64,000 nucleotides of DNA. Origin: Siphonodentalium dalli. Taxonomy: Eukaryota; Mollusca; Scaphopoda; Gadilida; Siphonodentaliidae. A program made the position numbers and the translations under genes. Each line of letters starts with the position of its first letter. The first letter of the stretch is position 1. The notes under the pieces are model-generated. The model was not told the origin of the DNA and did not search any database. It saw nothing but the letters and a program-made list of their open reading frames with translations. The stretch lies in the NCBI GenBank assembly GCA_032622095.1, contig CP136069.1, forward strand, positions 35,190,194 through 35,254,193, written 5' to 3'. Below, piece by piece: positions 6,781 through 64,000 of the stretch.

Positions 6781-6834
6781 TTTTCAATGATTCGGGATGA
6801 ATGAAGGAATAAATATTTTAACTTTTGCGTAATT

Positions 6835-6917: not shown

Positions 6918-9599
6918 AGATGTTGCTGCGACTGGATAGAAAACATTGGTTTGAGGTATGGATGTTGCTATAACTGGATAGTAGAGCATTAGTTTGAGGT
7001 ATGGATGTTGCTATGACTGGATAGTAAAGCATTAGTTTGAGGTATGGATGTTGTTGCGACTGGATAGTAAAGCATTAGTTTGAGGTATGGATGTTGCTGT
7101 GACTGGATAGTAAAGCATTAGTTTGAGGTACGGATGTTGCTATGACTGGATAGTAGAGCATTAGTTTGAGGTACGGATGTTGCTGTGACTGGATAGTAGA
7201 GCATTAGTTTGAGATACGGATGTTGCTGTCACTGGATAGTAGAGCATTAGTTTGAGGCACGGATGTTGCTATGACTGGATAGTAGAGCATTAGTTTGAGG
7301 CACGGTTGTTGCTGTGACTGGATTGTAAAGCATTAGTTTGAGGTACGGATGTTGCTATGACTGGATAGTAGAGCATTAGTTTGAGGTACGGATGTTGCTA
7401 TGACTGGATAGTAGAGCATTAGTTTGAGGTACGGATGTTGCTATGACTGGATAGTAAAGCATTAGTTTGAGGCACGGATGTTGCTATGACTGGATAGTAG
7501 AGCATTAGTTTGAGGCACGGTTGTTGCTGTGACTGGATTGTAAAGCATTAGTTTGAGGTACGGATGTTGCTGTGACTGGATAGTAGAGCATTAGTTTGAG
7601 GCACGGATGTTGCTGTGACTGGATAGTAGAGCATTAGTTTGAGGTACGGATGTTGCTATGACTGGATAGTAGAGCATTAGTTTGAGGTACGGATGTTGCT
7701 ATGACTGGATTGTAAAGCATTAGTTTGAGGCACGGATGTTGCTATGACTGGATAGTAGAGCATTAGTTTGAGGCACGGTTGTTGCTGTGACTGGATTGTA
7801 AAGCATTAGTTTGAGGTACGGATGTTGCTGTGACTGGATAGTAGAGCATTAGTTTGAGGTACGGATGTTGCTATGACTGGATAGTAGAGCATTAGTTTGA
7901 GGTACGGTTGTTGCTGTGACTGGATAGTAGAGCATTAGTTTGAGGCACGGATGTTGCTGTGACTGGATAGTAGAGCATTAGTTTGAGGTACGGATGTTGC
8001 TATGACTGGATAGTAGAGCATTAGTTTGAGGTACGGATGTTGCTATGACTGGATAGTAGAGCATTAGTTTGAGGTACGGATGTTGCTATGACTGGATAGT
8101 AGAGCATTAGTTTGAGGTACGGATGTTGCTATGACTGGATAGTAGAGCATTAGTTTGAGGTACGGATGTTGCTATGACTGGATAGTAGAGCATTAGTTTG
8201 AGGTACGGATGTTGCTATGACTGGATAGTAGAGCATTAGTTTGAGGCACGGATGTTGCTGTGACTGGATAGTAGAGCATTAGTTTGAGGTACGGATGTTG
8301 CTATGACTGGATAGTAGAGCATTAGTTTGAGGTACGGATGTTGCTATGACTGGATAGTAAAGCATTAGTTTGAGGCACGGATGTTGCTATGACTGGATAG
8401 TAGAGCATTAGTTTGAGGCACGGTTGTTGCTGTGACTGGATTGTAAAGCATTAGTTTGAGGTACGGATGTTGCTGTGACTGGATAGTAGAGCATTAGTTT
8501 GAGGCACGGTTGTTGCTGTGACTGGATAGTAAAGCATTAGTTTGAGGTACGGTTGTTGCTATGACTGGATAGTAGAGCATTAGTTTGAGGTACGGATGTT
8601 GCTATGACTGGATAGTAGAGCATTAGTTTGAGGTACGGATGTTGCTATGACTGGATAGTAAAGCATTAGTTTGAGGTACGGTTGTTGCTATGACTGGATA
8701 GTAGAGCATTAGTTTGAGGTACGGTTGTTGCTATGACTGGATTGTAAAGCATTAGTTTGCGGTACGGTTGTTGCTATGACTGGATAGTAGAGCATTAGTT
8801 TGAGGTACGGATGTTGCTATGACTGGATAGTAAAGCATTAGTTTGAGGTACGGATGTTGCTATAACTGGATAGTAAAGCATTAGTTTGAGGTACGGATGT
8901 TGCTATGACTGGATAGTAAAGCATTAGTTTGAGGTACGGATGTTGCTATGACTGGATAGTAGAGCATTAGTTTGAGGTACGGATGTTGCTATGACTGGAT
9001 AGTAGAGCATTAGTTTGAGGTACGGATGTTGCTATGACTGGATAGTAAAGCATTAGTTTGAGGTACGGATGTTGCTATGACTGGATAGTAGAGCATTAGT
9101 TTGAGGTACGGATGTTGCTATGACTGGATAGTAGAGCATTAGTTTGAGGTACGGATGTTGCTATGACTGGATAGTAAAGCATTAGTTTGAGGCACGGATG
9201 TTGCTGTGACTGGATAGTAGAGCATTAGTTTGAGGTACGGATGTTGCTATGACTGGATAGTAAAGCATTAGTTTGAGGTACGGATGTTGCTATGACTGGA
9301 TAGTAGAGCATTAGTTTGAGGTACGGATGTTGCTATGACTGGATAGTAAAGCATTAGTTTGAGGTACGGATGTTGCTATGACTGGATAGTAGAGCATTAG
9401 TTTGAGGTACGGATGTTGCTATGACTGGATTGTAAAGCATTAGTTTGAGGTACGGATGTTGCTGTGACTGGATAGTAAAGCATTAGTTTGAGGTACGGAT
9501 GTTGCTATGACTGGATAGTAGAGCATTAGTTTGAGGTACGGATGTTGCTGTGACTGGATAGTAAAGCATTAGTTTGAGGTACGGATGTTGCTATGACTG

Positions 9600-10890
9600 G
9601 ATAGTAAAGCATTAGTTTGAGGTACGGATGTTGCTATAACTGGATTGTAAAGCATTAGTTTGAGGTACGGATGTTGCTATGACTGGATAGTAAAGCATTA
9701 GTTTGAGGTACGGATGTTGCTATAACTGGATTGTAAAGCATTAGTTTGAGGTACGGATGTTGCTATAACTGGATTGTAAAGCATTAGTTTGAGGTACGGA
9801 TGTTGTTATGACTGGGTAGTAAAGCATTAGTTTGAGGTACGGATGTTGCTATGACTGGATAGTAGAGCATTAGTTTGAGGTACGGATGTTGCTATGACTG
9901 GATAGTAAAGCATTAGTTTGAGGTACGGATGTTGCTATGACTGGATAGTAAAGCATTAGTTTGAGGTACGGATGTTGCTATAACTGGATTGTAAAGCATT
10001 AGTTTGAGGTACGGATGTTGCTATGACTGGATAGTAAAGCATTAGTTTGAGGTACGGTTGTTGCTATGACTGGATTGTAAAGCATTAGTTTGAGGTACGG
10101 TTGTTGCTATGACTGGATAGTAAAGCATTAGTTTGAGGTACAGTTGTTGCTATAACTGGATTGTAAAGCATTAGTTTGAGGTACGGATGTTGCTATAACT
10201 GGATTGTAAAGCATTAGTTTGAGGTACGGATGTTGCTATGACTGGATAGTAAAGCATTAGTTTGAGGTACGGTTGTTGCTGTGACTGGATTGTAAAGCAT
10301 TAGTTTGAGGTACGGATGTTGCTATGACTGGATAGTAAAGCATTAGTTTGAGGTACGGATGTTGCTATAACTGGATTGTAAAGCATTAGTTTGAGGTACG
10401 GATGTTGCTATAACTGGATTGTAAAGCATTAGTTTGAGGTACGGATGTTGTTATGACTGGGTAGTAAAGCATTAGTTTGAGGTACGGATGTTGCTATGAC
10501 TGGATAGTAGAGCATTAGTTTGAGGTACGGATGTTGCTATGACTGGATAGTAAAGCATTAGTTTGAGGTACGGATGTTGCTATGACTGGATAGTAAAGCA
10601 TTAGTTTGAGGTACGGATGTTGCTATAACTGGATTGTAAAGCATTAGTTTGAGGTACGGATGTTGCTATGACTGGATAGTAAAGCATTAGTTTGAGGTAC
10701 GGTTGTTGCTATGACTGGATTGTAAAGCATTAGTTTGAGGTACGGTTGTTGCTATGACTGGATAGTAAAGCATTAGTTTGAGGTACAGTTGTTGCTATAA
10801 CTGGATTGTAAAGCATTAGTTTGAGGTACGGATGTTGCTATAACTGGATTGTAAAGCATTAGTTTGAGGTACGGATGTTGCTATGACTGG
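9600..10890. repeat. Tandem 15-unit (645-bp) higher-order duplication in the satellite
   Basis: The rare unit with GTTATGACTGGGTAG occurs at 9806 and again at 10451, exactly 645 bp (15 x 43) apart. The order of flanking variants (CTATAAC, GGATTGTAAAGC, GTACAGTTG) matches between the two copies. Directly afterwards a 4-unit (172-bp) pattern repeats at 10924 and 11096. This part of the array is rich in the A21T + G25A combination. Confidence 0.8.
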
Positions 10891-13800
10891 ATAGTAAAGC
10901 ATTAGTTTGAGGTACGGTTGTTGCTGTGACTGGATTGTAAAGCATTAGTTTGAGGTACGGTTGTTGCTATGACTGGATAGTAGAGCATTAGTTTGAGGTA
11001 CGGATGTTGCTATGACTGGATTGTAAAGCATTAGTTTGAGGTACGGATGTTGCTATGACTGGATAGTAAAGCATTAGTTTGAGGTACGGTTGTTGCTGTG
11101 ACTGGATTGTAAAGCATTAGTTTGAGGTACGGTTGTTGCTATGACTGGATAGTAGAGCATTAGTTTGAGGTACGGATGTTGCTATGACTGGATTGTAAAG
11201 CATTAGTTTGAGGTACGGATGTTGCTATGACTGGATAGTAAAGCATTAGTTTGAGGTACGGTTGTTGCTGTGACTGGATAGTAAAGCATTAGTTTGAGGT
11301 ACGGTTGTTGCTATAACTGGATTGTAAAGCATTAGTTTGAGGTACGGATGTTGCTATGACTGGATAGTAAAGCATTAGTTTGAGGTACGGATGTTGCTAT
11401 GACTGGATATTAGAGCATTAGTTTGAGGTACGGATGTTGCTATGACTGGATAGTAAAGCATTAGTTTGAGGTACGGTTGTTGCTATGACTGGATATTAGA
11501 GCATTAGTTTGAGGTACGGATGTTGCTATGACTGGATAGTAAAGCATTAGTTTGAGGTACGGATGTTGCTATGACTGGATAGTAAAGCATTAGTTTGAGG
11601 TACGGATGTTGCTATGACTGGATAGTAAAGCATTAGTTTGAGGTACGGTTGTTGCTATAACTGGATAGTAAAGCATTAGTTTGAGGTACGGTTGTTGCTG
11701 TGACTGGATAGTAGAGCATTAGTTTGAGGTACGGTTGTTGCTATGACTGGATAGTAAAGCATTAGTTTGAGGTACGGATGTTGCTATAACTGGATTGTAA
11801 AGCATTAGTTTGAGGTACGGATGTTGCTATGACTGGATAGTAAAGCATTAGTTTGAGGTACGGATGTTGCTATGACTGGATAGTAGAGCATTAGTTTGAG
11901 GTACGGTTGTTGCTATGACTGGATAGTAAAGCATTTGTTTGAGGTACGGATGTTGCTATGACTGGATTGTAAAGCATTAGTTTGAGGTACGGTTGTTGCT
12001 ATAACTGGATAGTAAAGCATTAGTTTGAGGTACGGATGTTGCTATGACTGGATAGTAGAGCATTAGTTTGAGGTACGGATGTTGCTATGACTGGATTGTA
12101 AAGCATTAGTTTGAGGTACGGTTGTTGCTATGACTGGATAGTAAAGCATTAGTTTGAGGTACGGTTGTTGCTATGACTGGATTGTAAAGCATTAGTTTGA
12201 GGTACGGATGTTGCTATAACTGGATAGTAGAGCATTAGTTTGAGGCACGGATGTTGCTATGACTGGATTGTAAAGCATTAGTTTGAGGTACAGATGTTGC
12301 TATGACTGGATTGTAAAGCATTAATTTGAGGTACGGATGTTGCTATGACTGGATAGTAAAGCATTAGTTTGAGGCACGGTTGTTGCTATAACTGGATTGT
12401 AAAGCATTAGTTTGAGGTACGGATGTTGCTGTGACTGGATAGTAAAGCATTAGTTTGAGGTACGGATGTTGCTATAACTGGATTGTAAAGCATTAGTTTG
12501 AGGTATGGATGTTGCTGTGACTGGATAGTAAAGCATTAGTTTGAGGTACGGATGTTGCTATGACTGGATTGTAAAGCATTAGTTTGAGGTTCGGATGTTG
12601 CTATGACTGGATTGTAAAGCATTAGTTTGAGGTATGGATGTTGCTATGACTGGATTGTAAAGCATTAGTTTGAGGTATGGATGTTGCTATGACTGAATAG
12701 TAAAGCATTAGTTTGAGGTACGGTTGTTGCTATGACTGGATAGTAAAGCATTAGTTTGAGGTACGGTTGTTGCTATGACTGGATTGTAAAGCAATAGTTT
12801 GAGGTACGGATGTTGCTATGACTGGATAGTAAAGCATTAGTTTGAGGTACGGATGTTGCTATAACTGGATTGTAAAGCATTAGTTTGAGGTACGGATGTT
12901 GCTGTGACTGGATAGTAAAGCATTAGTTTGAGGTACGGATGTTGCTGTGACTGGATAGTAAAGCATTAGTTTGAGGTACGGTTGTTGCTATGACTGGAAT
13001 GTAAAGCATTAGTTTGAGGTACGGATGTTGCTATGACTGGATTGTAAAGCATTAGTTTGAGGTACGGATGTTGCTATAACTGGATAGTAGAGCATTAGTT
13101 TGAGGTACGGATATTGTTATAACTGGATAGTAGAGCATTAGTTTGAGGTACGGTTGTTGCTATAACTGGATAGTAGAGCATTAGTTTGAGGTACGGATAT
13201 TGCTATAACTGGATAGTAGAGCATTAGTTTGAGGTACGGATGTTGCTGTGACTGGATAGTAGAGCATTAGTTTGAGGTACGGATGTTGCTATGACTGGAT
13301 AGTAAAGCATTAGTTTGAGGTACGGATGTTGCTATGACTGGATAGTAGAGCATTAGTTTGAGGTATGGATGTTGCTATAACTGGATAGTAGAGCATTAGT
13401 TTGAGGTACGGATGTTGCTGTGACTGGATAGTAAAGCAATAGTTTGAGGTACGGATGTTGCTATGACTGGATAGTAAAGCATTAGTTTGAGGTATGGATG
13501 TTGCTATAACTGGATTGTAAAGCATTAGTTTGAGGTACGGATGTTGCTGTGACTGGATAGTAAAGCATTAGTTTGAGGTACGGATGTTGCTATGACTGGA
13601 TTATAAAGCATTAGTTTGAGGTACGGATGTTGCTATGACTGGATTGTAAAGCATTAGTTTGAGGTACGGATGTTGCTATGACTGGATTGTAAAGCATTAG
13701 TTTGAGGTACGGTTGTTGCTATAACTGGATAGTAGAGCATTAGTTTGAGGTACGGATATTGCTATAACTGGATAGTAGAGCATTAGTTTGAGGTACGGAT

Positions 13801-14234
13801 GTTGCTGTGACTGGATAGTAGAGCATTAGTTTGAGGTACGGATGTTGCTATGACTGGATAGTAAAGCATTAGTTTGAGGTACGGATGTTGCTATGACTGG
13901 ATAGTAGAGCATTAGTTTGAGGCACGGATGTTGCTATGACTGGATAGTAAAGCATTAGTTTGAGGTACGGATGTTGCTATGACTGGATAGTAAAGCATTA
14001 GTTTGAGGTACGGATGTTGCTATGACTGGATAGTAGAGCATTAGTTTGAGGTACTGATGTTGCTATGACTGGATAGTAGAGCATTAGTTTGAGGTACGGA
14101 TGTTGCTATGACTGGATAGTAAAGCATTAGTTTGAGGAACGGATGTTGCTATGACTGGATAGTAAAGCATTAGTTTGAGGTACGGATGTTGCTATGACTG
14201 GATAGTAAAGCATTAGTTTGAGGTACGGATGTTG

Positions 14235-16960
14235 CTATAACTGGATAGTAAAGCATTAGTTTGAGGTACGGATGTTGCTATGACTGGATAGTAAAGCATT
14301 AGTTTGAGGTACGGATGTTGCTATGACTGGATAGTAGAGCATTAGTTTGAGGTACGGATGTTGCTATGACTGGATAGTAGAGCATTAGTTTGAGGTACGG
14401 ATGTTGCTATGACTGGATAGTAAAGCATTAGTTTGAGGCACGGATGTTGCTGTGACTGGATAGTAGAGCATTAGTTTGAGGTACGTATGTTGCTATGACT
14501 GGATAGTAAAGCATTAGTTTGAGGTATGGATGTTGCTATGACTGGATAGTAGAGCATTAGTTTGAGGTACGGTTGTTGCTGTGACTGGATAGTAGAGCAT
14601 TAGTTTGAGGCACGGATGTTGCTATGACTGGATAGTAGAGCATTAGTTTGAGGTACGGATGTTGCTATGACTGGATAGTAAAGCATTAGTTTGAGGTATG
14701 GATGTTGCTATGACTGGATAGTAGAGCATTAGTTTGAGGTACGGATGTTGCTGTGACTGGATAGTAAAGCATTAGTTTGAGGTATGGATGTTGCTATGAC
14801 TGGATAGTAGAGCATTAGTTTGAGGTACGGTTGTTGCTGTGACTGGATAGTAGAGCATTAGTTTGAGGTACGGGTGTTGCTGTGACTGGATAGTAGAGCA
14901 TTAGTTTGAGGTACGGATGTTGCTATGACTGGATAGTAAAGCATTAGTTTGAGGTACGGTTGTTGCTATGACTGGATAGTAGAGCATTAGTTTGAGGTAC
15001 GGTTGTTGCTGTGACTGGATAGTAAAGCATTAGTTTGAGGTACGGTTGTTGCTATGACTGGATAGTAGAGCATTAGTTTGAGGTACTGATGTTGCTATGA
15101 CTGGATAGTAAAGCATTAGTTTGAGGTACGGTTGTTGCTATGACTGGATAGTAGAGCATTAGTTTGAGGTACGGTTGTTGCTGTGACTGGATAGTAAAGC
15201 ATTAGTTTGAGGTACGGTTGTTGCTGTGACTGGATAGTAGAGCATTAGTTTGAGGCACGGATGTTGCTGTGACTGGATAGTAAAGCATTAGTTTGAGGTA
15301 TGGATGTTGCTATGACTGGATAGTAGAGCATTAGTTTGAGGTACTGATGTTGCTATGACTGGATAGTAAAGCATTAGTTTGAGGTACTGATGTTGCTATG
15401 ACTGGATAGTAAAGCATTAGTTTGAGGTACGGTTGTTGCTATGACTGGATAGTAGAGCATTAGTTTGAGGTATGGATGATGCTATGACTGGATAGTAGAG
15501 CATTAGTTTGAGGTACGGTTGTTGCTGTGACTGGATAGTAGAGCATTAGTTTGAGGCACGGATGTTGCTGTGACTGGATAGTAAAGCATTAGTTTGAGGT
15601 ATGGATGTTGCTAAGACTGGATAGTAGAGCATTAGTTTGAGGTACGGTTGTTGCTGTGACTGGATAGTAGAGCATTAGTTTGAGGCACGGATGTTGCTAT
15701 AACTGGATAGTAAAGCATTAGTTTGAGGTACGGATGTTGCTATGACTGGATAGTAAAGCATTAGTTTGAGGTACGGATGTTGCTATGACTGGATAGTAGA
15801 GCATTAGTTTGAGGTACGGATGTTGCTATGACTGGATAGTAGAGCATTAGTTTGAGGTACGGATGTTGCTATGACTGGATAGTAAAGCATTAGTTTGAGG
15901 CACGGATGTTGCTGTGACTGGATAGTAGAGCATTAGTTTGAGGTACGTATGTTGCTATGACTGGATAGTAAAGCATTAGTTTGAGGTATGGATGTTGCTA
16001 TGACTGGATAGTAGAGCATTAGTTTGAGGTACGGTTGTTGCTGTGACTGGATAGTAGAGCATTAGTTTGAGGCACGGATGTTGCTATGACTGGATAGTAG
16101 AGCATTAGTTTGAGGTACGGATGTTGCTATGACTGGATAGTAAAGCATTAGTTTGAGGTATGGATGTTGCTATGACTGGATAGTAAAGCATTAGTTTGAG
16201 GTACGGTTGTTGCTATGACTGGATAGTAGAGCATTAGTTTGAGGTACGGTTGTTGCTGTGACTGGATAGTAAAGCATTAGTTTGAGGTACGGTTGTTGCT
16301 ATGACTGGATAGTAGAGCATTAGTTTGAGGTACTGATGTTGCTATGACTGGATAGTAAAGCATTAGTTTGAGGTACGGTTGTTGCTATGACTGGATAGTA
16401 GAGCATTAGTTTGAGGTACGGTTGTTGCTGTGACTGGATAGTAAAGCATTAGTTTGAGGTACGGTTGTTGCTGTGACTGGATAGTAGAGCATTAGTTTGA
16501 GGCACGGATGTTGCTGTGACTGGATAGTAAAGCATTAGTTTGAGGTATGGATGTTGCTATGACTGGATAGTAGAGCATTAGTTTGAGGTACTGATGTTGC
16601 TATGACTGGATAGTAAAGCATTAGTTTGAGGTACTGATGTTGCTATGACTGGATAGTAAAGCATTAGTTTGAGGTACGGTTGTTGCTATGACTGGATAGT
16701 AGAGCATTAGTTTGAGGTATGGATGTTGCTATGACTGGATAGTAGAGCATTAGTTTGAGGTACGGTTGTTGCTGTGACTGGATAGTAGAGCATTAGTTTG
16801 AGGCACGGATGTTGCTGTGACTGGATAGTAAAGCATTAGTTTGAGGTATGGATGTTGCTATGACTGGATAGTAGAGCATTAGTTTGAGGTACGGTTGTTG
16901 CTGTGACTGGATAGTAGAGCATTAGTTTGAGGCACGGATGTTGCTATGACTGGATAGTAG
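14235..16960. repeat. 34-unit higher-order duplication with a 5-unit deletion in the second copy
   Basis: The landmark variant TACGTATG occurs at 14484 and 15946, and CTATAAC at 14235 and 15697, both 1,462 bp (34 x 43) apart. Further right the offset changes to 1,247 bp (29 x 43): for example the TATGGATG units at 15467 and 16714. One copy has therefore lost, or the other gained, five whole units near 14708-14951. Copy 1 has a private change at about 15479 (GATGATGCT). Confidence 0.75.
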
Positions 16961-19900
16961 AGCATTAGTTTGAGGTACGGTTGTTGCTGTGACTGGATAG
17001 TAGAGCATTAGTTTGAGGTATGGATGTTGCTATGACTGGATAGTAGAGCATTAGTTTGAGGTACGGTTGTTGCTGTGACTGGATAGTAAAGCATTAGTTT
17101 GAGGTACGGTTGTTGCTGTGACTGGATAGTAAAGCATTAGTTTGAGGTACGGATGTTGCTGTGACTGGATAGTAGAGCATTAGTTTGAGGTACGGTTGTT
17201 GCTGTGACTGGATAGTAGAGCATTAGTTTGAGGTACGGATGTTGCTATGACTGGATAGTAAAGCATTAGTTTGAGGTACGGTTGTTGCTGTGACTGGATA
17301 GTAGAGCATTAGTTTGAGGTACGGATGTTGCTATAACTGGATAGTAAAGCATTAGTTTGAGGTACGGATGTTGCTATGACTGGATAGTAAAGCATTAGTT
17401 TGAGGTACGGATGTTGCTATGACTGGATAGTAGAGCATTAGTTTGAGGTACGGATGTTGCTATGACTGGATAGTAAAGCATTAGTTTGAGGTACGGATGT
17501 TGCTATGACTGGATAGTAGAGCATTAGTTTGAGGTACGGATGTTGCTATGACTGGATAGTAAAGCATTAGTTTGAGGTATGGATGTTGCTATGACTGGAT
17601 AGTAAAGCATTAGTTTGAGGTACGGATGTTGCTATGACTGGATAGTAAAGCATTAGTTTGAGGTACGGTTGTTGCTGTGACTGGATAGTAGAGCATTAGT
17701 TTGAGGCACGGATGTTGCTATGACTGGATAGTAGAGCATTAGTTTGAGGTACGGATGTTGCTATGACTGGATAGTAAAGCATTAGTTTGAGGTATGGATG
17801 TTGCTATGACTGGATAGTAAAGCATTAGTTTGAGGTACGGTTGTTGCTGTGACTGGATAGTAGAGCATTAGTTTGAGGCACGGATGTTGCTATGACTGGA
17901 TAGTAGAGCATTAGTTTGAGGTACGGATGTTGCTATGACTGGATAGTAAAGCATTAGTTTGAGGTATGGATGTTGCTATGACTGGATAGTAGAGCATTAG
18001 TTTGAGGTACGGATGTTGCTGTGACTGGATAGTAAAGCATTAGTTTGAGGTATGGATGTTGCTATGACTGGATAGTAAAGCATTAGTTTGAGGTACGGAT
18101 GTTGCTATGACTGGATAGTAGAGCATTAGTTTGAGGTACGGATGTTGCTGTGACTGGATAGTAGAGCATTAGTTTGAGGTACGGATGTTGCTATGACTGG
18201 ATAGTAGAGCATTAGTTTGAGGTACGGATGTTGCTATGACTGGATAGTAGAGCATTAGTTTGAGGTACGGATGTTGCTATGACTGGATAGTAGAGCATTA
18301 GTTTGAGGTACGGATGTTGCTATGACTGGATAGTAAAGCATTAGTTTGAGGTACGGATGTTGCTATGACTGGATAGTAGAGCATTAGTTTGAGGTACGGA
18401 TGTTGCTATGACTGGATAGTAAAGCATTAGTTTGAGGTACGGTTGTTGCTATGACTGGATAGTAGAGCATTAGTTTGAGGTACTGATGTTGCTATGACTG
18501 GATAGTAAAGCATTAGTTTGAGGTACTGATGTTGCTATGACTGGATAGTAAAGCATTAGTTTGAGGTACGGTTGTTGCTATGACTGGATAGTAGAGCATT
18601 AGTTTGAGGTACGGTTGTTGCTGTGACTGGATAGTAAAGCATTAGTTTGAGGTACGGTTGTTGCTATGACTGGATAGTAGAGCATTAGTTTGAGGTACTG
18701 ATGTTGCTATGACTGGATAGTAGAGCATTAGTTTGAGGTACGGTTGTTGCTATGACTGGATAGTAGAGCATTAGTTTGAGGTACGGTTGTTGCTATGACT
18801 GGATAGTAGAGCATTAGTTTGAGGTACTGATGTTGCTATGACTGGATAGTAAAGCATTAGTTTGAGGTACGGTTGTTGCTATGACTGGATAGTAAAGCAT
18901 TAGTTTGAGGTACGGATGTTGCTGTGACTGGATTGTAAAGCATTAGTTTGAGGTACGGATGTTGCTGTGACTGGATAGTAGAGCATTAGTTTGAGGTACT
19001 GATGTTGCTATGACTGGATAGTAGAGCATTAGTTTGAGGTACGGTTGTTGCTATGACTGGATAGTAAAGCATTAGTTTGAGGTACGGATGTTGCTGTGAC
19101 TGGATTGTAAAGCATTAGTTTGAGGTACGGATGTTGCTATGACTGGATAGTAGAGCATTAGTTTGAGGTACGGTTGTTGCTATGACTGGATAGTAAAGCA
19201 TTAGTTTGAGGTACGGATGTTGCTGTGACTGGATTGTAAAGCATTAGTTTGAGGTACGGATGTTGCTATGACTGGATAGTAGAGCATTAGTTTGAGGTAC
19301 TGATGTTGCTATGACTGGATAGTAGAGCATTAGTTTGAGGTACGGTTGTTGCTATGACTGGATAGTAGAGCATTAGTTTGAGGTACTGATGTTGCTATGA
19401 CTGGATAGTAAAGCATTAGTTTGAGGTACGGTTGTTGCTATGACTGGATAGTAAAGCATTAGTTTGAGGTACGGATGTTGCTGTGACTGGATTGTAAAGC
19501 ATTAGTTTGAGGTACGGATGTTGCTGTGACTGGATAGTAAAGCATTAGTTTGAGGTACGGATGTTGCTGTGACTGGATAGTAGAGCATTAGTTTGAGGTA
19601 TGGATGTTGCTATGACTGGATAGTAGAGCATTAGTTTGAGGTACGGTTGTTGCTGTGACTGGATAGTAGAGCATTAGTTTGAGGCACGGATGTTGCTATG
19701 ACTGGATAGTAGAGCATTAGTTTGAGGTACGGTTGTTGCTGTGACTGGATAGTAGAGCATTAGTTTGAGGTATGGATGTTGCTATGACTGGATAGTAGAG
19801 CATTAGTTTGAGGTACGGTTGTTGCTGTGACTGGATAGTAAAGCATTAGTTTGAGGCACGGTTGTTGCTGTGACTGGATAGTAAAGCATTAGTTTGAGGT

Positions 19901-22346: not shown

Positions 22347-22447
22347 GAGGTACGGATGTTGCTATGACTGGATAGTAGAGCATTAGTTTGAGGTATGGAT
22401 GTTGCTATGACTGGATAGTAGAGCATTAGTTTGAGGTACGGATGTTG

Positions 22448-50119: not shown

Positions 50120-50375
50120 GAGGTACGGATGTTGCTATGACTGGATTGTAAAGCATTAGTTTGAGGTACGGATGTTGCTATGACTGGATTGTAAAGCATT
50201 AGTTTGAGGTACGGATGTTGCTATGACTGGATTGTAAAGCATTAGTTTGAGGTACGGATGTTGCTATGACTGGATTGTAAAGCATTAGTTTGAGGTACGG
50301 ATGTTGCTATGACTGGATTGTAAAGCATTAGTTTGAGGTACGGATGTTGCTATGACTGGATTGTAAAGCATTAGT
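50120..50375. repeat. Run of six identical A21T + G25A units
   Basis: Six consecutive units read GGATTGTAAAGC with no intervening type, ended by a GGCACGG unit. Like the run near 42 kb, this indicates local homogenisation by short-range unequal exchange or slippage. Confidence 0.75.
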
Positions 50376-51629: not shown

Positions 51630-52860
51630 ACGGTTGTTGCCTTGACTGGATAGTAGAGCATTAGTTTGAGGTACGGATGTTGCTATGACTGGATAGTAGA
51701 GCATTAGTTTGAGGTACGGATGTTGCTATGACTGGATAGTAGAGCATTAGTTTGAGGTACGGATGTTGCTATGACTGGATAGTAGAGCATTAGTTTGAGG
51801 TACGGATGTTGCTATGACTGGATAGTAAAGCATTAGTTTGAGGTACGGTTGTTGCCTTGACTGGATAGTAGAGCATTAGTTTGAGGTACGGATGTTGCTA
51901 TGACTGGATAGTAGAGCATTAGTTTGAGGTACGGATGTTGCTATGACTGGATAGTAAAGCATTAGTTTGAGGTACGGTTGTTGCCTTGACTGGATAGTAG
52001 AGCATTAGTTTGAGGTACGGATGTTGCTGTGACTGGATAGTAGAGCATTAGTTTGAGGTACGGATGTTGCTATGACTGGATAGTAGAGCATTAGTTTGAG
52101 GTACGGATGTTGCTATGACTGGATAGTAAAGCATTAGTTTGAGGTACGGTTGTTGCCTTGACTGGATAGTAGAGCATTAGTTTGAGGTACGGATGTTGCT
52201 ATGACTGGATAGTAGAGCATTAGTTTGAGGTACGGATGTTGCTATGACTGGATAGTAAAGCATTAGTTTGAGGTACGGTTGTTGCCTTGACTGGATAGTA
52301 GAGCATTAGTTTGAGGTACGGATGTTGCTATGACTGGATAGTAGAGCATTAGTTTGAGGTACTGATGTTGCTATGACTGGATAGTAGAGCATTAGTTTGA
52401 GGTACGGATGTTGCTATGACTGGATAGTAGAGCATTAGTTTGAGGTACTGATGTTGCTATGACTGGATAGTAGAGCATTAGTTTGAGGTACGGATGTTGC
52501 TATGACTGGATAGTAGAGCATTAGTTTGAGGTACGGATGTTGCTATGACTGGATAGTAGAGCATTAGTTTGAGGTACGGATGTTGCTATGACTGGATAGT
52601 AGAGCATTAGTTTGAGGTACGGTTGTTGCTATGACTGGATAGTAGAGCATTAGTTTGAGGTATGGATGTTGCAATGACTGGATAGTAGAGCATTAGTTTG
52701 AGGTACGGTTGTTGCTGTGACTGGATAGTAGAGCATTAGTTTGAGGTACGGATGTTGCTATGACTGGATAGTAGAGCATTAGTTTGAGGTACGGATGTTG
52801 CTATGACTGGATAGTAAAGCATTAGTTTGAGGTACGGTTGTTGCCTTGACTGGATAGTAG
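51630..52860. repeat. Cluster of TTGCCTTGAC units with 3- and 4-unit spacing
   Basis: The double variant T10C + A11T (TTGCCTTGAC) is rare elsewhere (near 45961, 48371, 49791, 62209). Here it recurs at about 51638, 51852, 51981, 52153, 52282 and 52840. Successive spacings of 129, 172 and 129 bp (3, 4, 3 units) show a young short-period higher-order repeat. Confidence 0.75.
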
Positions 52861-53179
52861 AGCATTAGTTTGAGGTACGGTTGTTGCTGTGACTGGATAG
52901 TAAAGCATTAGTTTGAGGTACGGTTGTTGCTATGACTGGATAGTAGAGCATTAGTTTGAGGTACGGATGTTGCTATGACTGGATAGTAAAGCATTAGTTT
53001 GAGGTACGGTTGTTGCTATGACTGGATAGTAGAGCATTAGTTTGAGGTACGGATGTTGCTATGACTGGATAGTAAAGCATTAGTTTGAGGTACGGATGTT
53101 GCTGTGACTGTATAGTAAAGCATTAGTTTGAGGTACGGATGTTGCTATGACTGGATAGTAAAGCATTAGTTTGAGGTAC

Positions 53180-56100
53180 GGATGTTGCTATAACTGGATA
53201 GTAGAGCATTAGTTTGAGGTACGGATGTTGCTATGACTGGGTAGTAAAGCATTAGTTTGAGGTACGGATGTTGCTATGACTGGATAGTAGAGCATTAGTT
53301 TGAGGTACGGTTGTTGCTGTGACTGGATAGTAGAGCATTAGTTTGAGGTACGGTTGTTGCTGTGACTGGATAGTAGAGCATTAGTTTGAGGTACGGATGT
53401 TGCTATGACTGGATAGTAGAGCATTAGTTTGAGGTACGGTTGTTGCTATGACTGGATAGTAGAGCATTAGTTTGAGGTACGGTTGTTGCTATGACTGGGT
53501 AGTAAAGCATTAGTTTGAGGTACGGATGTTGCTATGACTGGATAGTAGAGCATTAGTTTGAGGTACGGATGTTGCTATGACTGGATAGTAGAGCATTAGT
53601 TTGAGGTACGGTTGTTGCTATGACTGGATAGTAGAGCATTAGTTTGAGGTACGGATGTTGCTATGACTGGATAGTAGAGCATTAGTTTGAGGTACGGTTG
53701 TTGCTATGACTGGATAGTAGAGCATTAGTTTGAGGTACGGATGTTGCTATGACTGGATAGTAGAGCATTAGTTTGAGGTATGGATGTTGCTATGACTGGA
53801 TAGTAGAGCATTAGTTTGAGGTACGGATGTTGCTATGACTGGATAGTAGAGCATTAGTTTGAGGTACGGTTGTTGCTATAACTGGATAGTAGAGCATTAG
53901 TTTGAGGTACGGTTGTTGCTATGACTGGATAGTAGAGCATTAGTTTGAGGTACGGATGTTGCTATGACTGGATAGTAGAGCATTAGTTTGAGGTACGGAT
54001 GTTGCTGTGACTGGATAGTAGAGCATTAGTTTGAGGTACGGTTGTTGCTATGACTGGATAGTAGAGCATTAGTTTGAGGTACGGATGTTGCTATGACTGG
54101 ATAGTAGAGCATTAGTTTGAGGTACGGATGTTGCTATGACTGGATAGTAGAGCATTAGTTTGAGGTACGGATGTTGCTATGACTGGATAGTAAAGCATTA
54201 GTTTGAGGTACGGATGTTGCTATGACTGGATAGTAGAGCATTAGTTTGAGGTACGGATGTTGCTATGACTGGATAGTAAAGCATTAGTTTGAGGTACGGA
54301 TGTTGCTATGACTGGATAGTAAAGCATTAGTTTGAGGTACGGATGTTGCTATGACTGGATAGTAGAGCATTAGTTTGAGGCACGGATGTTGCTATGACTG
54401 GATAGTAGAGCATTAGTTTGAGGTACGGATGTTGCTATGACTGGATAGTAGAGCATTAGTTTGAGGTACGGATGTTGCTATGACTGGATAGTAAAGCATT
54501 AGTTTGAGGTACGGATGTTGCTATGACTGGATAGTAAAGCATTAGTTTGAGGTACGGATGTTGCTATGACTGGATAGTAGAGCATTAGTTTGAGGTACGG
54601 ATGTTGCTATGACTGGATAGTAGAGCATTAGTTTGAGGTACGGATGTTGCTATGACTGGATAGTAGAGCATTAGTTTGAGGTACGGATGTTGCTATAACT
54701 GGATAGTAGAGCATTAGTTTGAGGTACGGATGTTGCTATGACTGGGTAGTAAAGCATTAGTTTGAGGTACGGATGTTGCTATGACTGGATAGTAGAGCAT
54801 TAGTTTGAGGTACGGTTGTTGCTATGACTGGATAGTAGAGCATTAGTTTGAGGTACTGATGTTGCTATGACTGGATAGTAGAGCATTAGTTTGAGGTACG
54901 GATGTTGCTATGACTGGATAGTAGAGCATTAGTTTGAGGTACTGATGTTGCTATGACTGGATAGTAGAGCATTAGTTTGAGGTACGGATGTTGCTATGAC
55001 TGGATAGTAGAGCATTAGTTTGAGGTACGGTTGTTGCTATGACTGGATAGTAGAGCATTAGTTTGAGGTACGGTTGTTGCTATGACTGGATAGTAGAGCA
55101 TTAGTTTGAGGTACTGATGTTGCTATGACTGGATAGTAGAGCATTAGTTTGAGGTACGGATGTTGCTATGACTGGATAGTAGAGCATTAGTTTGAGGTAC
55201 GGATGTTGCTATGACTGGATAGTAGAGCATTAGTTTGAGGTACGGTTGTTGCTATGACTGGATAGTAGAGCATTAGTTTGAGGTACGGTTGTTGCTATGA
55301 CTGGATAGTAGAGCATTAGTTTGAGGTACTGATGTTGCTATGACTGGATAGTAGAGCATTAGTTTGAGGTACGGATGTTGCTATGACTGGATAGTAGAGC
55401 ATTAGTTTGAGGTACGGTTGTTGCTATGACTGGATAGTAGAGCATTAGTTTGAGGTACGGTTGTTGCTATGACTGGGTAGTAAAGCATTAGTTTGAGGTA
55501 CGGATGTTGCTATGACTGGATAGTAGAGCATTAGTTTGAGGTACGGATGTTGCTATGACTGGATAGTAGAGCATTAGTTTGAGGTACGGATGTTGCTATG
55601 ACTGGATAGTAAAGCATTAGTTTGAGGTACGGATGTTGCTATGACTGGATAGTAAAGCATTAGTTTGAGGTACGGATGTTGCTATGACTGGATAGTAAAG
55701 CATTAGTTTGAGGTACGGATGTTGCTATGACTGGATAGTAAAGCATTAGTTTGAGGTACGGATGTTGCTATGACTGGATAGTAGAGCATTAGTTTGAGGT
55801 ACGGATGTTGCTATGACTGGATAGTAAAGCATTAGTTTGAGGTACGGATGTTGCTATGACTGGATAGTAGAGCATTAGTTTGAGGTACGGATGTTGCTAT
55901 GACTGGATAGTAGAGCATTAGTTTGAGGTACGGATGTTGCTATAACTGGATAGTAGAGCATTAGTTTGAGGTACGGATGTTGCTATGACTGGGTAGTAAA
56001 GCATTAGTTTGAGGTACGGATGTTGCTATGACTGGATAGTAGAGCATTAGTTTGAGGTACGGTTGTTGCTGTGACTGGATAGTAGAGCATTAGTTTGAGG

Positions 56101-57310
56101 TACGGTTGTTGCTGTGACTGGATAGTAGAGCATTAGTTTGAGGTACGGATGTTGCTATGACTGGATAGTAGAGCATTAGTTTGAGGTACGGTTGTTGCTA
56201 TGACTGGATAGTAGAGCATTAGTTTGAGGTACGGTTGTTGCTATGACTGGGTAGTAAAGCATTAGTTTGAGGTACGGATGTTGCTATGACTGGATAGTAG
56301 AGCATTAGTTTGAGGTACGGATGTTGCTATGACTGGATAGTAGAGCATTAGTTTGAGGTACGGTTGTTGCTATGACTGGATAGTAGAGCATTAGTTTGAG
56401 GTACGGATGTTGCTATGACTGGATAGTAGAGCATTAGTTTGAGGTACGGTTGTTGCTATGACTGGATAGTAGAGCATTAGTTTGAGGTACGGATGTTGCT
56501 ATGACTGGATAGTAGAGCATTAGTTTGAGGTATGGATGTTGCTATGACTGGATAGTAGAGCATTAGTTTGAGGTACGGATGTTGCTATGACTGGATAGTA
56601 GAGCATTAGTTTGAGGTACGGTTGTTGCTATAACTGGATAGTAGAGCATTAGTTTGAGGTACGGTTGTTGCTATGACTGGATAGTAGAGCATTAGTTTGA
56701 GGTACGGATGTTGCTATGACTGGATAGTAGAGCATTAGTTTGAGGTACGGATGTTGCTGTGACTGGATAGTAGAGCATTAGTTTGAGGTACGGTTGTTGC
56801 TATGACTGGATAGTAGAGCATTAGTTTGAGGTACGGATGTTGCTATGACTGGATAGTAGAGCATTAGTTTGAGGTACGGATGTTGCTATGACTGGATAGT
56901 AGAGCATTAGTTTGAGGTACGGATGTTGCTATGACTGGATAGTAAAGCATTAGTTTGAGGTACGGATGTTGCTATGACTGGATAGTAGAGCATTAGTTTG
57001 AGGTACGGATGTTGCTATGACTGGATAGTAAAGCATTAGTTTGAGGTACGGATGTTGCTATGACTGGATAGTAAAGCATTAGTTTGAGGTACGGATGTTG
57101 CTATGACTGGATAGTAGAGCATTAGTTTGAGGCACGGATGTTGCTATGACTGGATAGTAGAGCATTAGTTTGAGGTACGGATGTTGCTATGACTGGATAG
57201 TAGAGCATTAGTTTGAGGTACGGATGTTGCTATGACTGGATAGTAAAGCATTAGTTTGAGGTACGGATGTTGCTATGACTGGATAGTAAAGCATTAGTTT
57301 GAGGTACGGA
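53180..57310. repeat. Second 64-unit (2,752-bp) offset duplication
   Basis: The ACTGGGTAGTAAAGC unit at 53239 recurs at 55991, and the GGCACGG unit at 54377 recurs at 57129, both exactly 2,752 bp apart. The match covers about 53180-54560 against 55930-57310; the intervening part differs. The offset equals that of the duplication at 16843-22346, though the unit order is not evidently the same. Confidence 0.7.
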
Positions 57311-60300
57311 TGTTGCTATGACTGGATAGTAAAGCATTAGTTTGAGGTACGGATGTTGCTATGACTGGATAGTAAAGCATTAGTTTGAGGTACGGATGTT
57401 GCTATGACTGGATAGTAGAGCATTAGTTTGAGGTACGGATGTTGCTATGACTGGATAGTAAAGCATTAGTTTGAGGTACGGATGTTGCTATGACTGGATA
57501 GTAGAGCATTAGTTTGAGGTACGGATGTTGCTATGACTGGATAGTAGAGCATTAGTTTGAGGTACGGATGTTGCTATGACTGGATAGTAAAGCATTAGTT
57601 TGAGGTACGGATGTTGCTATGACTGGATAGTAGAGCATTAGTTTGAGGTACGGTTGTTGCTATGACTGGATAGTAAAGCATTAGTTTGAGGTACGGATGT
57701 TGCTATGACTGGATAGTAGAGCATTAGTTTGAGGTACGGTTGTTGCTATGACTGGATAGTAGAGCATTAGTTTGAGGTACGGATGTTGCTATGACTGGAT
57801 AGTAAAGCATTAGTTTGAGGTACGGATGTTGCTATGACTGGATAGTAGAGCATTAGTTTGAGGTACGGATGTTGCTGTGACTGGATAGTAGAGCATTAGT
57901 TTGAGGTATGGATGTTGCTATGACTGGATTGTAAAGCATTAGTTTGAGGTACGGATGTTGCTATAACTGGATAGTAGAGCATTAGTTTGAGGTACGGATG
58001 TTGCTATGACTGGATAGTAGAGCATTAGTTTGAGGTACGGATGTTGCTATGACTGGATAGTAGAGCATTAGTTTGAGGTACGGATGTTGCTATGACTGGA
58101 TAGTAGAGCATTAGTTTGAGGTACGGATGTTGCTATGACTGGATAGTAGAGCATTAGTTTGAGGTACGGTTGCTGTGACTGGATAGTAGAGCATTAGTTT
58201 GAGGTACGGATGTTGCTATGACTGGATTGTAAAGCATTAGTTTGAGGTACGGTTGCTGTGACTGGATAGTAGAGCATTAGTTTGAGGTACGGATGTTGCT
58301 ATGACTGGATTGTAAAGCATTAGTTTGAGGTACGGTTGTTGCTATGACTGGATAGTAGAGCATTAGTTTGAGGTACGGATGTTGCTATGACTGGATAGTA
58401 GAGCATTAGTTTGAGGTACGGATGTTGCTATGACTGGATAGTAGAGCATTAGTTTGAGGTACGGATGTTGCTATGACTGGATAGTAAAGCATTAGTTTGA
58501 GGTACGGATGTTGCTATGACTGGATAGTAGAGCATTAGTTTGAGGTACGGATGTTGCTATGACTGGATAGTAAAGCATTAGTTTGAGGTACGGATGTTGC
58601 TATGACTGGATAGTAAAGCATTAGTTTGAGGTACGGATGTTGCTATGACTGGATAGTAGAGCATTAGTTTGAGGCACGGATGTTGCTATGACTGGATAGT
58701 AGAGCATTAGTTTGAGGTACGGATGTTGCTATGACTGGATAGTAGAGCATTAGTTTGAGGTACGGATGTTGCTATGACTGGATAGTAAAGCATTAGTTTG
58801 AGGTACGGATGTTGCTATGACTGGATAGTAAAGCATTAGTTTGAGGTACGGATGTTGCTATGACTGGATAGTAAAGCATTAGTTTGAGGTACGGATGTTG
58901 CTATGACTGGATAGTAAAGCATTAGTTTGAGGTACGGATGTTGCTATGACTGGATAGTAGAGCATTAGTTTGAGGTACGGATGTTGCTATGACTGGATAG
59001 TAAAGCATTAGTTTGAGGTACGGATGTTGCTATGACTGGATAGTAGAGCATTAGTTTGAGGTACGGATGTTGCTATGACTGGATAGTAGAGCATTAGTTT
59101 GAGGTACGGATGTTGCTATGACTGGATAGTAAAGCATTAGTTTGAGGTACGGATGTTGCTATGACTGGATAGTAGAGCATTAGTTTGAGGTACGGTTGTT
59201 GCTATGACTGGATAGTAAAGCATTAGTTTGAGGTACGGATGTTGCTATGACTGGATAGTAGAGCATTAGTTTGAGGTACGGTTGTTGCTATGACTGGATA
59301 GTAGAGCATTAGTTTGAGGTACGGATGTTGCTATGACTGGATAGTAGAGCATTAGTTTGAGGTACGGATGTTGCTATGACTGGATAGTAGAGCATTAGTT
59401 TGAGGTATGGATGTTGCTATAACTGGATAGTAGAGCATTAGTTTGAGGTACGGATGTTGCTATGACTGGATAGTAGAGCATTAGTTTGAGGTACGGATGT
59501 TGCTATGACTGGATAGTAGAGCATTAGTTTGAGGTACGGATGTTGCTATGACTGGATAGTAGAGCATTAGTTTGAGGTACGGATGTTGCTATGACTGGAT
59601 AGTAGAGCATTAGTTTGAGGTACGGATGTTGCTATGACTGGATAGTAGAGCATTAGTTTGAGGTACGGATGTTGCTATGACTGGATAGTAGAGCATTAGT
59701 TTGAGGTACGGTTGCTGTGACTGGATAGTAGAGCATTAGTTTGAGGTACGGATGTTGCTATGACTGGATTGTAAAGCATTAGTTTGAGGTACGGATGTTG
59801 CTATGACTGGATAGTAGAGCATTAGTTTGAGGTACGGTTGTTGCTATGACTGGATAGTAGAGCATTAGTTTGAGGTACGGATGTTACTATGACTGGATTG
59901 TAGAGCATTAGTTTGAGGTACGGTTGTTGCTATGACTGGATAGTAGAGCATTAGTTTGAGGTACGGATGTTGCTATGACTGGATAGTAGAGCATTAGTTT
60001 GAGGTACGGATGTTGCTATGACTGGATAGTAAAGCATTAGTTTGAGGTACGGATGTTGCTATGACTGGATAGTAAAGCATTAGTTTGAGGTACGGATGTT
60101 GCTATGACTGGATAGTAGAGCATTAGTTTGAGGTACGGTTGTTGTTATGACTGGATAGTAAAGCATTAGTTTGAGGCACGGATGTTGCTGTGACTGGATA
60201 GTAAAGCATTAGTTTGAGGTATGGATGTTGCTGTGACTGGATAGTAAAGCATTAGTTTGAGGTATGGATATTGCTATAACTGGATAGTAGAGCATTAGTT

Positions 60301-63300
60301 TGAGGTATGGATATTGCTATAACTGGATAGTAGAGCATTAGTTTGAGGTACTGATGTTGCTATGACTGGATAGTAGAGCATTAGTTTGAGGTACGGTTGT
60401 TGCTGTGACTGGATAGTAGAGCATTAGTTTGAGGTACGGATGTTGCTATGACTGGATAGTAGAGCATTAGTTTGAGGTACGGATGTTGCTATGACTGGAT
60501 AGTAGAGCATTAGTTTGAGGTACGGATGTTGCTATGACTGGATAGTAAAGCATTAGTTTGAGGTACGGATGTTGCTATGACTGGATAGTAAAGCATTAGT
60601 TTGAGGTACGGATGTTGCTATGACTGGATAGTAGAGCATTAGTTTGAGGTACGGATGTTGCTATGACTGGATAGTAGAGCATTAGTTTGAGGTACGGATG
60701 TTGCTATGACTGGATAGTAGAGCATTAGTTTGAGGTACGGATGTTGCTATGACTGGATAGTAGAGCATTAGTTTGAGGTACGGATGTTGCTATGACTGGA
60801 TAGTAGAGCATTAGTTTGAGGTACGGATGTTGCTATGACTGGATAGTAGAGCATTAGTTTGAGGTACGGATGTTGCTATGACTGGATAGTAGAGCATTAG
60901 TTTGAGGTACGGATGTTGCTATGACTGGATAGTAGAGCATTAGTTTGAGGTACGGATGTTGCTATGACTGGATAGTAAAGCATTAGTTTGAGGTACGGAT
61001 GTTGCTATGACTGGATAGTAAAGCATTAGTTTGAGGTACGGATGTTGCTATGACTGGATAGTAGAGCATTAGTTTGAGGTACGGATGTTGCTATGACTGG
61101 ATAGTAGAGCATTAGTTTGAGGTACGGATGTTGCTATGACTGGATAGTAGAGCATTAGTTTGAGGTACGGATGTTGCTATGACTGGATAGTAGAGCATTA
61201 GTTTGAGGTACGGATGTTGCTATGACTGGATAGTAGAGCATTAGTTTGAGGTACGGATGTTGCTATGACTGGATAGTAGAGCATTAGTTTGAGGTACGGA
61301 TGTTGCTATGACTGGATAGTAGAGCATTAGTTTGAGGTACGGATGTTGCTATGACTGGATAGTAGAGCATTAGTTTGAGGTACGGATGTTGCTATGACTG
61401 GATAGTAGAGCATTAGTTTGAGGTACTGATGTTGCTATGACTGGATAGTAGAGCATTAGTTTGAGGTACGGATGTTGCTATGACTGGATAGTAGAGCATT
61501 AGTTTGAGGTACGGATGTTGCTATGACTGGATAGTAGAGCATTAGTTTGAGGTACGGATGTTGCTATGACTGGATAGTAGAGCATTAGTTTGAGGTACGG
61601 ATGTTGCTATGACTGGATAGTAAAGCATTAGTTTGAGGTACGGATGTTGCTATGACTGGATAGTAAAGCATTAGTTTGAGGTACGGATGTTGCTATGACT
61701 GGATAGTAGAGCATTAGTTTGAGGTACGGATGTTGCTATGACTGGATGGTAGAGCATTAGTTTGAGGTACGGATGTTGCTATGACTGGATAGTAAAGCAT
61801 TAGTTTGAGGTATGGTTGTTGCTGTGACTGGATTGTAAAGCATTAGTTTGAGGTACGGATGTTGCTATGACTGGATAGTAGAGCATTAGTTTGAGGTACG
61901 GTTGTTGCTATGACTGGATAGTAAAGCATTAGTTTGAGGTACGGATGTTGCTGTGACTGGATTGTAAAGCATTAGTTTGAGGTACGGTTGTTGCTATGAC
62001 TGGATAGTAGAGCATTAGTTTGAGGTACGGATGTTGCTGTGACTGGATAGTAGAGCATTAGTTTGAGGTACGGATGTTGTTATGACTGGATAGTAGAGCA
62101 TTAGTTTGAGGTACGGATGTTGCTATGACTGGATAGTAAAGCATTAGTTTGAGGTACGGATGTTGCTATGACTGGATAGTAAAGCATTAGTTTGAGGTAC
62201 GGTTGTTGCCTTGACTGGATAGTAGAGCATTAGTTTGAGGTACGGATGTTGCTATGACTGGATAGTAGAGCATTAGTTTGAGGTACGGATGTTGCTATGA
62301 CTGGATAGTAGAGCATTAGTTTGAGGCACGGATGTTGCTGTGACTGGATAGTAAAGCATTAGTTTGAGGTACGGATGTTGCTATGACTGGATAGTAGAGC
62401 ATTAGTTTGAGGCACGGATGTTGCTGTGACTGGATAGTAAAGCATTAGTTTGAGGTACGGATGTTGCTATGACTGGATAGTAGAGCATTAGTTTGAGGCA
62501 CGGATGTTGCTGTGACTGGATAGTAAAGCATTAGTTTGAGGTACGGATGTTGCTATGACTGGATAGTAAAGCATTAGTTTGAGGCACGGATGTTGCTGTG
62601 ACTGGATAGTAAAGCATTAGTTTGAGGTACGGATGTTGCTATGACTGGATAGTAGAGCATTAGTTTGAGGTACGGATGTTGCTATAACTGGATAGTAGAG
62701 CATTAGTTTGAGGTACGGATGTTGCTATGACTGGATAGTAGAGCATTAGTTTGAGGTACGGATGTTGCTATAACTGGATAGTAGAGCATTAGTTTGAGGT
62801 ACGGTTGTTGCTATGACTGGATAGTAGAGCATTAGTTTGAGGTACGGATGTTGCTATGACTGGATAGTAGAGCATTAGTTTGAGGTACGGATGTTGCTGT
62901 GACTGGATAGTAGAGCATTAGTTTGAGGTACGGTTGTTGCTATGACTGGATAGTAGAGCATTAGTTTGAGGTACGGATGTTGCTATGACTGGATAGTAGA
63001 GCATTAGTTTGAGGTACGGATGTTGCTATGACTGGATAGTAGAGCATTAGTTTGAGGTACGGATGTTGCTATGACTGGATAGTAAAGCATTAGTTTGAGG
63101 TACGGATGTTGCTATGACTGGATAGTAGAGCATTAGTTTGAGGTACGGATGTTGCTATGACTGGATAGTAAAGCATTAGTTTGAGGTACGGATGTTGCTA
63201 TGACTGGATAGTAAAGCATTAGTTTGAGGTACGGATGTTGCTATGACTGGATAGTAGAGCATTAGTTTGAGGCACGGATGTTGCTATGACTGGATAGTAG

Positions 63301-64000
63301 AGCATTAGTTTGAGGTACGGATGTTGCTATGACTGGATAGTAGAGCATTAGTTTGAGGTACGGATGTTGCTATGACTGGATAGTAAAGCATTAGTTTGAG
63401 GTACGGATGTTGCTATGACTGGATAGTAAAGCATTAGTTTGAGGTACGGATGTTGCTATGACTGGATAGTAAAGCATTAGTTTGAGGTACGGATGTTGCT
63501 ATGACTGGATAGTAAAGCATTAGTTTGAGGTACGGATGTTGCTATGACTGGATAGTAGAGCATTAGTTTGAGGTACGGATGTTGCTATGACTGGATAGTA
63601 AAGCATTAGTTTGAGGTACGGATGTTGCTATGACTGGATAGTAGAGCATTAGTTTGAGGTACGGATGTTGCTATGACTGGATAGTAGAGCATTAGTTTGA
63701 GGTACGGATGTTGCTATGACTGGATAGTAAAGCATTAGTTTGAGGTACGGATGTTGCTATGACTGGATAGTAGAGCATTAGTTTGAGGTACGGTTGTTGC
63801 TATGACTGGATAGTAAAGCATTAGTTTGAGGTACGGATGTTGCTATGACTGGATAGTAGAGCATTAGTTTGAGGTACGGTTGTTGCTATGACTGGATAGT
63901 AGAGCATTAGTTTGAGGTACGGATGTTGCTATGACTGGATAGTAAAGCATTAGTTTGAGGTACGGATGTTGCTATGACTGGATAGTAGAGCATTAGTTTG
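56930..64000. repeat. Three copies of one variant-ordered block at the right end
   Basis: A block centred on a GGCACGG unit occurs at 57129, 58671 and 63269 with the same order of AAAGC/AGAGC units around it. The offsets are 1,542 bp (36 x 43 minus 6) and 4,598 bp (107 x 43 minus 3). The shortfalls are exactly explained by two 40-bp units (58167, 58250) and one (59709) between the copies. The last copy runs to the window edge. Confidence 0.7.

What the first reader, a model, noticed from the sequence alone, without database searches (positions are those of the whole stretch)
6918..64000. 57-kb single-orientation 43-bp satellite of about 1,330 units with no interruption
The array fills almost 90% of the window and continues past it, without a single inserted transposon, inversion or unique sequence. 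Such purity over 57 kb contrasts with the repeat-riddled 7 kb to its left. It suggests active homogenisation, or a structural role such as heterochromatin. I do not recognise the unit as a known satellite family.
Basis: seen in the sequence. Interest (0 to 1): 0.7.

Follow-up and report, generated by a model that had tools for sequence, protein, structure and literature searches.

The report
Intron repeat grown from six copies
The 43-base repeat is a 114,000-base array inside one intron of a protein-coding gene, and a near-identical second copy of that gene 110 million bases away on the same chromosome carries only six units, so the genome seems to hold a before-and-after picture of a satellite array being born.

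Summary
The array is real. It starts at window 6918/6919 and continues past the window to a total of about 114.06 kb: 2,652 units, one strand, no insert, no N.

It is not a stand-alone satellite. It lies inside one phase-1 GT-AG intron of a VIT+VWA (VWA5-like) gene, whose exons flank it on both sides, and it stretches that intron to 115.9 kb.

Genome-wide, the only other copies found (5 pattern hits, 6 units by TRF) sit 110 Mb away on the same chromosome, at the same place in a near-identical paralogous intron (0.8% mismatches in the flanks). That intron is 2.1 kb long. The window's copy lies in a rearranged 376-kb duplicate of a VIT-gene cluster, inserted in phase into an array of an unrelated 214-bp satellite.

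Five neighbouring tandem repeats differ little between the two copies. Only the 43-bp repeat changed, about 440-fold.

Blocks of 54–102 units recur at 96–100% identity, and 62% of units lie in block repeats, so growth by serial tandem block duplication is the best explanation. No support was found for a structural or heterochromatin role.

This is a new, single-locus member of a known kind (intronic mini-/satellite), valuable as a matched long/short pair. Main caveat: size and placement rest on one assembly.

The parts
713..915 (+). exon carrying the first part of the VIT domain
   Evidence: frame, splice signals and Pfam VIT PF08487 E=2.6e-33; 100% identical protein in paralog B
1624..1846 (+). 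exon with the rest of the VIT domain
4735..4943 (+). exon (Asp-rich insert and linker)
   Evidence: open frame, AG/GT borders; matched in paralogs L074 and L078
5082..5190 (+). exon immediately upstream of the giant intron (donor AAAAAT|GTGAGT at 5190/5191)
5191..64000 (+). part in the window of one phase-1 intron of about 115.9 kb; it ends at G000:C9:35311267 (acceptor TTACATTACAG|CTGGGATG) before the exon that opens the VWA domain (...FIFLIDRSG|SM...)
   Evidence: the same intron in paralog B is 2,132 bp
5382..6050 (+). 23-bp minisatellite in the same intron (29 copies here, 31 in paralog B): internal control
6835..6923 (+). 28/29-bp repeat, 3.2 copies, abutting the array (same number in paralog B)
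6918..64000 (+). 43-bp array, consensus GATGTTGCTATGACTGGATAGTAGAGCATTAGTTTGAGGTACG; 1,327 units in the window, 2,652 in all (to G000:C9:35311171)

Best explanation
It is a young, locus-specific satellite that grew from an intronic minisatellite. A segment of a VIT/VWA (VWA5-like) gene cluster at C9:145.06-145.79 Mb was copied, rearranged, into a 214-bp satellite array at C9:35.1-35.5 Mb (shown by sequence, subject to the assembly). In the copied gene, a minisatellite of a few 43-bp units between the VIT and VWA exons then grew to about 2,650 units (inferred from the comparison). Growth proceeded by repeated tandem duplication of multi-unit blocks of roughly 2-4.5 kb, as expected from unequal sister-chromatid exchange or replication-based duplication (pattern shown; molecular process inferred). 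The array would be spliced out as part of a 116-kb intron (splice sites intact; transcription not tested). It most likely has no selected function of its own.
For: (1) Intronic: VIT exons lie before the array (Pfam E=2.6e-33) and VWA exons after it (VWA_3 E=4.5e-17), same strand, in frame across GT-AG sites. (2) Locus-specific: genome count 2,657 = 2,652 here + 5 at C9:145.677 Mb, none elsewhere. (3) Matched short copy: the paralogous intron has the same edge units (first two and last two), the same GGATCC joint and the same splice sites, but only 6 units; intron 2,132 vs about 115,884 bp. (4) Recent: 173 mismatches in about 22.0 kb of aligned flank (0.8%); protein identical over 6 exons. (5) Neighbouring repeats are stable: 23-bp 29.1 vs 31.1 copies, 29-bp 3.2/3.2, 46-bp 2.3/2.3, 18-bp 2.7/2.7, 164-bp about 10.8 vs 9.9. 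(6) Block growth: runs such as 81 units at lag 80 and 76 at lag 76 are 100% identical, and 102 at lag 102 are 99%; shuffled order gives runs of at most 6. (7) 72% of the units contain only bases seen in B's units; rare variants 0.14% per site. (8) Two other paralogs have a short corresponding intron (about 0.5 and 1.8 kb) without the unit. (9) The duplicate is embedded in the 214-bp satellite without N, and the satellite's phase continues across it.
Against: No reads, optical map or second individual were available, so array length and placement rest on one assembly. Contraction in B from a formerly long array is not formally excluded; B lacks some variants that are common in A (20T, 40C, 8T, 43T), which fits expansion but is not proof. 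No transcript evidence shows that the expanded copy is still expressed.
Confidence: 0.8

Rival explanations
1. The array was already long before the gene was duplicated, and the B copy shrank to six units.
For: B keeps both array edges with only two interior units, which a deletion between the edges would also leave.
Against: Two other paralogs have no such array. The exact multi-kb block copies and few rare variants show recent growth of A. Variants common in A are absent from B.
Confidence: 0.12
2. A and B are two alleles of one locus, one of them misplaced by the assembly, and the array is a heterozygous length polymorphism.
For: 0.8% divergence with kilobase-scale indels looks like allelic divergence in a highly heterozygous invertebrate; high heterozygosity and assembly trouble are documented for chitons, for instance (PMC12005716).
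Against: The A island is joined to the 214-bp satellite on both sides without N, and the satellite resumes 4-7 bp further on in phase. A combines pieces from two places of the B cluster, one of them inverted (97.7% identity), and lacks a gene lying between B segments.
Confidence: 0.08
3. A structural or centromeric satellite with a chromosome-level role.
For: Long, pure, single-orientation array inside a domain with another satellite.
Against: One large locus in a 2.2-Gb genome, inside an intron of a gene with intact splice sites; not found on the other chromosomes.
Confidence: 0.03
4. Tandem repeats belonging to a transposon (for example the central repeats of a Helitron/Helentron).
For: Such a link is common in the oyster (PMC7492417, PMC8268682).
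Against: Only two places in the genome hold the unit, both in the same duplicated intron; both edges run into ordinary intron sequence shared by A and B.
Confidence: 0.03

Closest known systems
Satellite-filled gigantic introns of Drosophila Y-linked genes (kl-3, kl-5; Fingerhut et al. 2019, PMC6508621)
   Same: Satellite DNA forms nearly all of an intron of a protein-coding gene and must be transcribed and spliced across.
   Different: Those are megabase introns of simple 5-bp satellites on a Y chromosome. This is 114 kb of a 43-bp unit at one locus of a 215-Mb chromosome, with a near-identical short-intron paralog in the same genome. Expression was not tested here.
Minisatellites / VNTRs in introns (general knowledge)
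   Same: Unit of 10-100 bp, intronic, grows by tandem duplication, block-structured variant map.
   Different: 2,652 units and 114 kb are in the satellite size range; the paralog shows the ordinary minisatellite state (6 units).
Scattered satellites of the oyster Crassostrea gigas (PMC8268682)
   Same: Invertebrate satellites in short to medium arrays outside classical heterochromatin; longest stand-alone array there about 40 kb.
   Different: Those families are multi-locus and often Helitron-borne; this one is single-locus with no mobile-element ends found.

Membership tests
Satellite DNA (long tandem array) | head-to-tail units in long arrays (tens of kb or more) | tested here: met
   114.06 kb, 2,652 units, one strand
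Satellite DNA (classical, multi-locus) | many arrays or chromosomes, often centromeric or heterochromatic | tested here: not met
   Only C9:35.2 Mb and a 6-unit copy at C9:145.7 Mb
Intronic minisatellite/VNTR | 10-100 bp unit within an intron | tested here: met
   VIT exons before, VWA exon after, GT-AG sites
Intronic minisatellite/VNTR | copy number varies between chromosomes or alleles | not testable with these tools
   One assembly only; variation between two paralogs is shown
Gigantic satellite intron (Drosophila Y-loop type) | satellite makes up most of an intron of a gene | tested here: met
   about 114.1 of 115.9 kb
Gigantic satellite intron (Drosophila Y-loop type) | transcribed through and spliced by a dedicated programme | not testable with these tools
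   no RNA data
Higher-order-repeat satellite | one dominant multi-unit period throughout the array | tested here: not met
   Lags of long repeated runs range from 10 to over 700 units without one dominant value; identity declines smoothly with lag
Helitron/Helentron central repeats | array flanked by conserved element ends at dispersed sites | tested here: not met
   No dispersed sites found
Segmental duplication | long, near-identical, non-allelic copies | tested here: met
   A island vs B cluster at 96-100% identity at points from 35,165 to 35,500 kb, rearranged; no N at the junctions; read depth not available
VWA5-like gene (VIT + VWA) | VIT domain followed by VWA domain | tested here: met
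   PF08487 E=2.6e-33; PF13768 E=4.5e-17 on a hand-joined exon chain

The most novel reading that the evidence does not exclude
The insertion of a gene segment into a satellite domain set off runaway growth of the most homogeneous minisatellite in its intron (about 440-fold) while less homogeneous repeats a kilobase away stayed the same. This would be a natural experiment showing that the purity of the starting repeat together with its chromosomal setting decides which minisatellites become satellites, and it gives a matched pair of genes with 2-kb and 116-kb versions of one intron.
Probability: 0.3. Interest if true: 0.65.

Novelty: new member of a known kind. Interest (0 to 1): 0.5.

Why it matters
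How a short tandem repeat becomes a 100-kb satellite is usually inferred from finished arrays. Here the small and the grown state sit in two gene copies that differ by under 1% in their flanks, with five neighbouring repeats as controls and the steps of block duplication still readable. The pair also offers a direct test of what a 54-fold longer, repeat-filled intron does to transcription and splicing of an otherwise near-identical gene.

Tried and rejected
Coding function: 43 is not a multiple of 3, and all six frames of the tripled unit contain stops. Higher-order repeat: no dominant period. Dispersed transposon origin: no other sites found. Misplaced allele: judged unlikely from the gap-free, in-phase junctions with the 214-bp satellite and the rearranged make-up. 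Organism: not identified; paper searches for a 2.2-Gb, nine-chromosome assembly gave no match, and a molluscan haemocyanin domain search found nothing, with a control that could not ring. Paper search for the unit or for 43-bp satellites: nothing relevant. Paper search combining VWA5A with intron minisatellites: none.

Full report
OBSERVATION. The window is G000:C9:35190194-35254193 of a 2.227-Gb assembly in 9 sequences. TRF finds a single 43-bp array from 6919 to the window's end, and unit-by-unit segmentation gives 1,327 units with only small register shifts. Taking the sequence to the right shows that the array ends at C9:35311171: 114.06 kb, 2,652 units, 2,639 of 2,651 spacings exactly 43, no N. 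All copies are on one strand.

WHERE IT SITS. The '7 kb to its left' contains exons at 713-915, 1624-1846, 4735-4943 and 5082-5190, encoding a VIT domain (PF08487, E=2.6e-33) and a linker. About 100 bp after the array's last unit comes an exon reading SGMLTLDMAMLNFFMKFKEEMDLTKKEFIFLIDRSG, which with the following exons forms a VWA domain (PF13768, E=4.5e-17; exons joined by eye). The reading frame passes from AAAAAT|GTGAGT at 5190/5191 to TTACATTACAG|CTGGGATG across the array. The array therefore fills one phase-1 intron of about 115.9 kb. The nearest solved relatives by sequence are PARP4 (VIT part) and an inter-alpha-trypsin inhibitor heavy chain (VWA part); the VIT+VWA layout is that of VWA5-like proteins (general knowledge).

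THE SECOND COPY. A genome-wide pattern search (29 bases, up to 3 mismatches) gives 2,657 matches. Of these, 2,652 are in the array and the other five are at C9:145.677 Mb. That place is the same intron of a paralogous gene: same splice sites, same first two and last two units, same GGATCC joint, but 6.0 units by TRF and an intron of 2,132 bp. Collinear flanks align at 0.8% mismatches (173 in about 22.0 kb) plus kilobase-scale indels; six exons differ at 5 of 873 bases and at no amino acid. Other tandem repeats in the same gene copies are nearly unchanged: 23-bp 29.1 vs 31.1 copies, 29-bp 3.2 vs 3.2, 46-bp 2.3 vs 2.3, 18-bp 2.7 vs 2.7, and 164-bp about 10.8 (two rows) vs 9.9. Only the 43-bp repeat changed, by about 440-fold.

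DUPLICATION. VIT exons mark seven genes at C9:145.06-145.73 Mb and three at C9:35.19-35.49 Mb. Sample points show that the 35-Mb island corresponds to 145.625-145.790 Mb in the same orientation and to about 145.140-145.155 Mb inverted (96-100% identity). It lacks one gene that lies between those segments at 145.63 Mb. The island spans C9:35145550-35521672 and is joined on both sides to an array of a 214-bp satellite without N. The satellite breaks off at consensus position 161 and resumes at 166-169, as expected for an insertion into one unit (the chance of such phase agreement is about 4%, my estimate). Hence A is most likely the derived copy and B the source. A misplaced allele is unlikely but cannot be excluded without reads.

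HOW IT GREW. Units fall into 164 types. The common variants at positions 2, 10, 12, 24 and 42 are already present among the B units, and 72% of A units contain only bases seen in B units. Variants found in fewer than 20 units amount to 0.14% per site, less than half of the per-branch share of the A-B flank divergence (about 0.4%). Variant order shows long repeated runs: 102 units at lag 102 (99%), 81 at lag 80 (100%), 76 at lag 76 (100%), 66 at lag 65 (100%) and others; shuffled order gives runs of at most 6. 62% of the units lie in such blocks, 38% in the left half and 86% in the right half. Lags vary without one dominant period, so this is serial tandem block duplication rather than a fixed higher-order repeat. 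The block with 81 identical units has no difference in about 3.5 kb, so growth continued until recently. Collapsing the eight listed block copies as possible assembly errors would still leave about 2,040 units. Two other paralogs have a corresponding intron of about 0.5 and 1.8 kb without the unit, which favours growth in A over shrinkage in B.

MECHANISM AND FUNCTION. Shown: intronic position, matched short copy, block duplications, embedding in another satellite. Inferred: unequal exchange or replication-based duplication as the process, growth after the segmental duplication, and lack of a selected function. Why only this repeat grew is open. Its units are more alike (about 95% TRF matches) than those of the 23-bp repeat (88%), and homogeneity favours unequal pairing; the satellite-rich setting may add to it. 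Possible consequences, untested: a 54-fold longer intron, strong strand asymmetry (GC skew about +0.55 on the sense strand), and 2,379 GAG|GTA motifs that resemble weak 5' splice sites.

KNOWN KINDS. Satellite-filled introns are known, most clearly in Drosophila Y-linked kl-3 and kl-5 (PMC6508621), and intronic minisatellites are common. The unit matched nothing in the papers held; Dfam and Repbase were not available. This is a new, single-locus member of a known kind, notable for the matched short and long copies within one genome.

Noticed in passing
G000:C9:34.84-36.0 Mb (outside the window), also C2:219.27 Mb and C3:235.97 Mb: A 214-bp satellite (3,006 forward and 890 reverse hits of a 34-base pattern) surrounds the duplicated gene island; only a few loci were seen in the listing.
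   Followed up: partly
G000:C9:145.06-145.73 Mb (outside the window): A cluster of seven VIT-domain genes, the apparent source of the window's gene; two further VIT frames at C5:51.25 and C5:52.92 Mb have the same score and long open frames (686 and 697 aa).
   Followed up: partly
window 5382-6050 and 6675-6779: A 23-bp minisatellite in two pieces in the same intron; it differs by about two copies between the paralogs.
   Followed up: yes
window 6919-64000: GAG|GTA, a weak 5'-splice-site-like motif in the sense orientation, occurs 2,379 times in the 2,652 units of the full array.
   Followed up: no
window 3640-3770: An inverted repeat (arms containing ...tatgaaacgagtc... and ...gacgagtttcata...) resembling a foldback or MITE-like element.
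   Followed up: no
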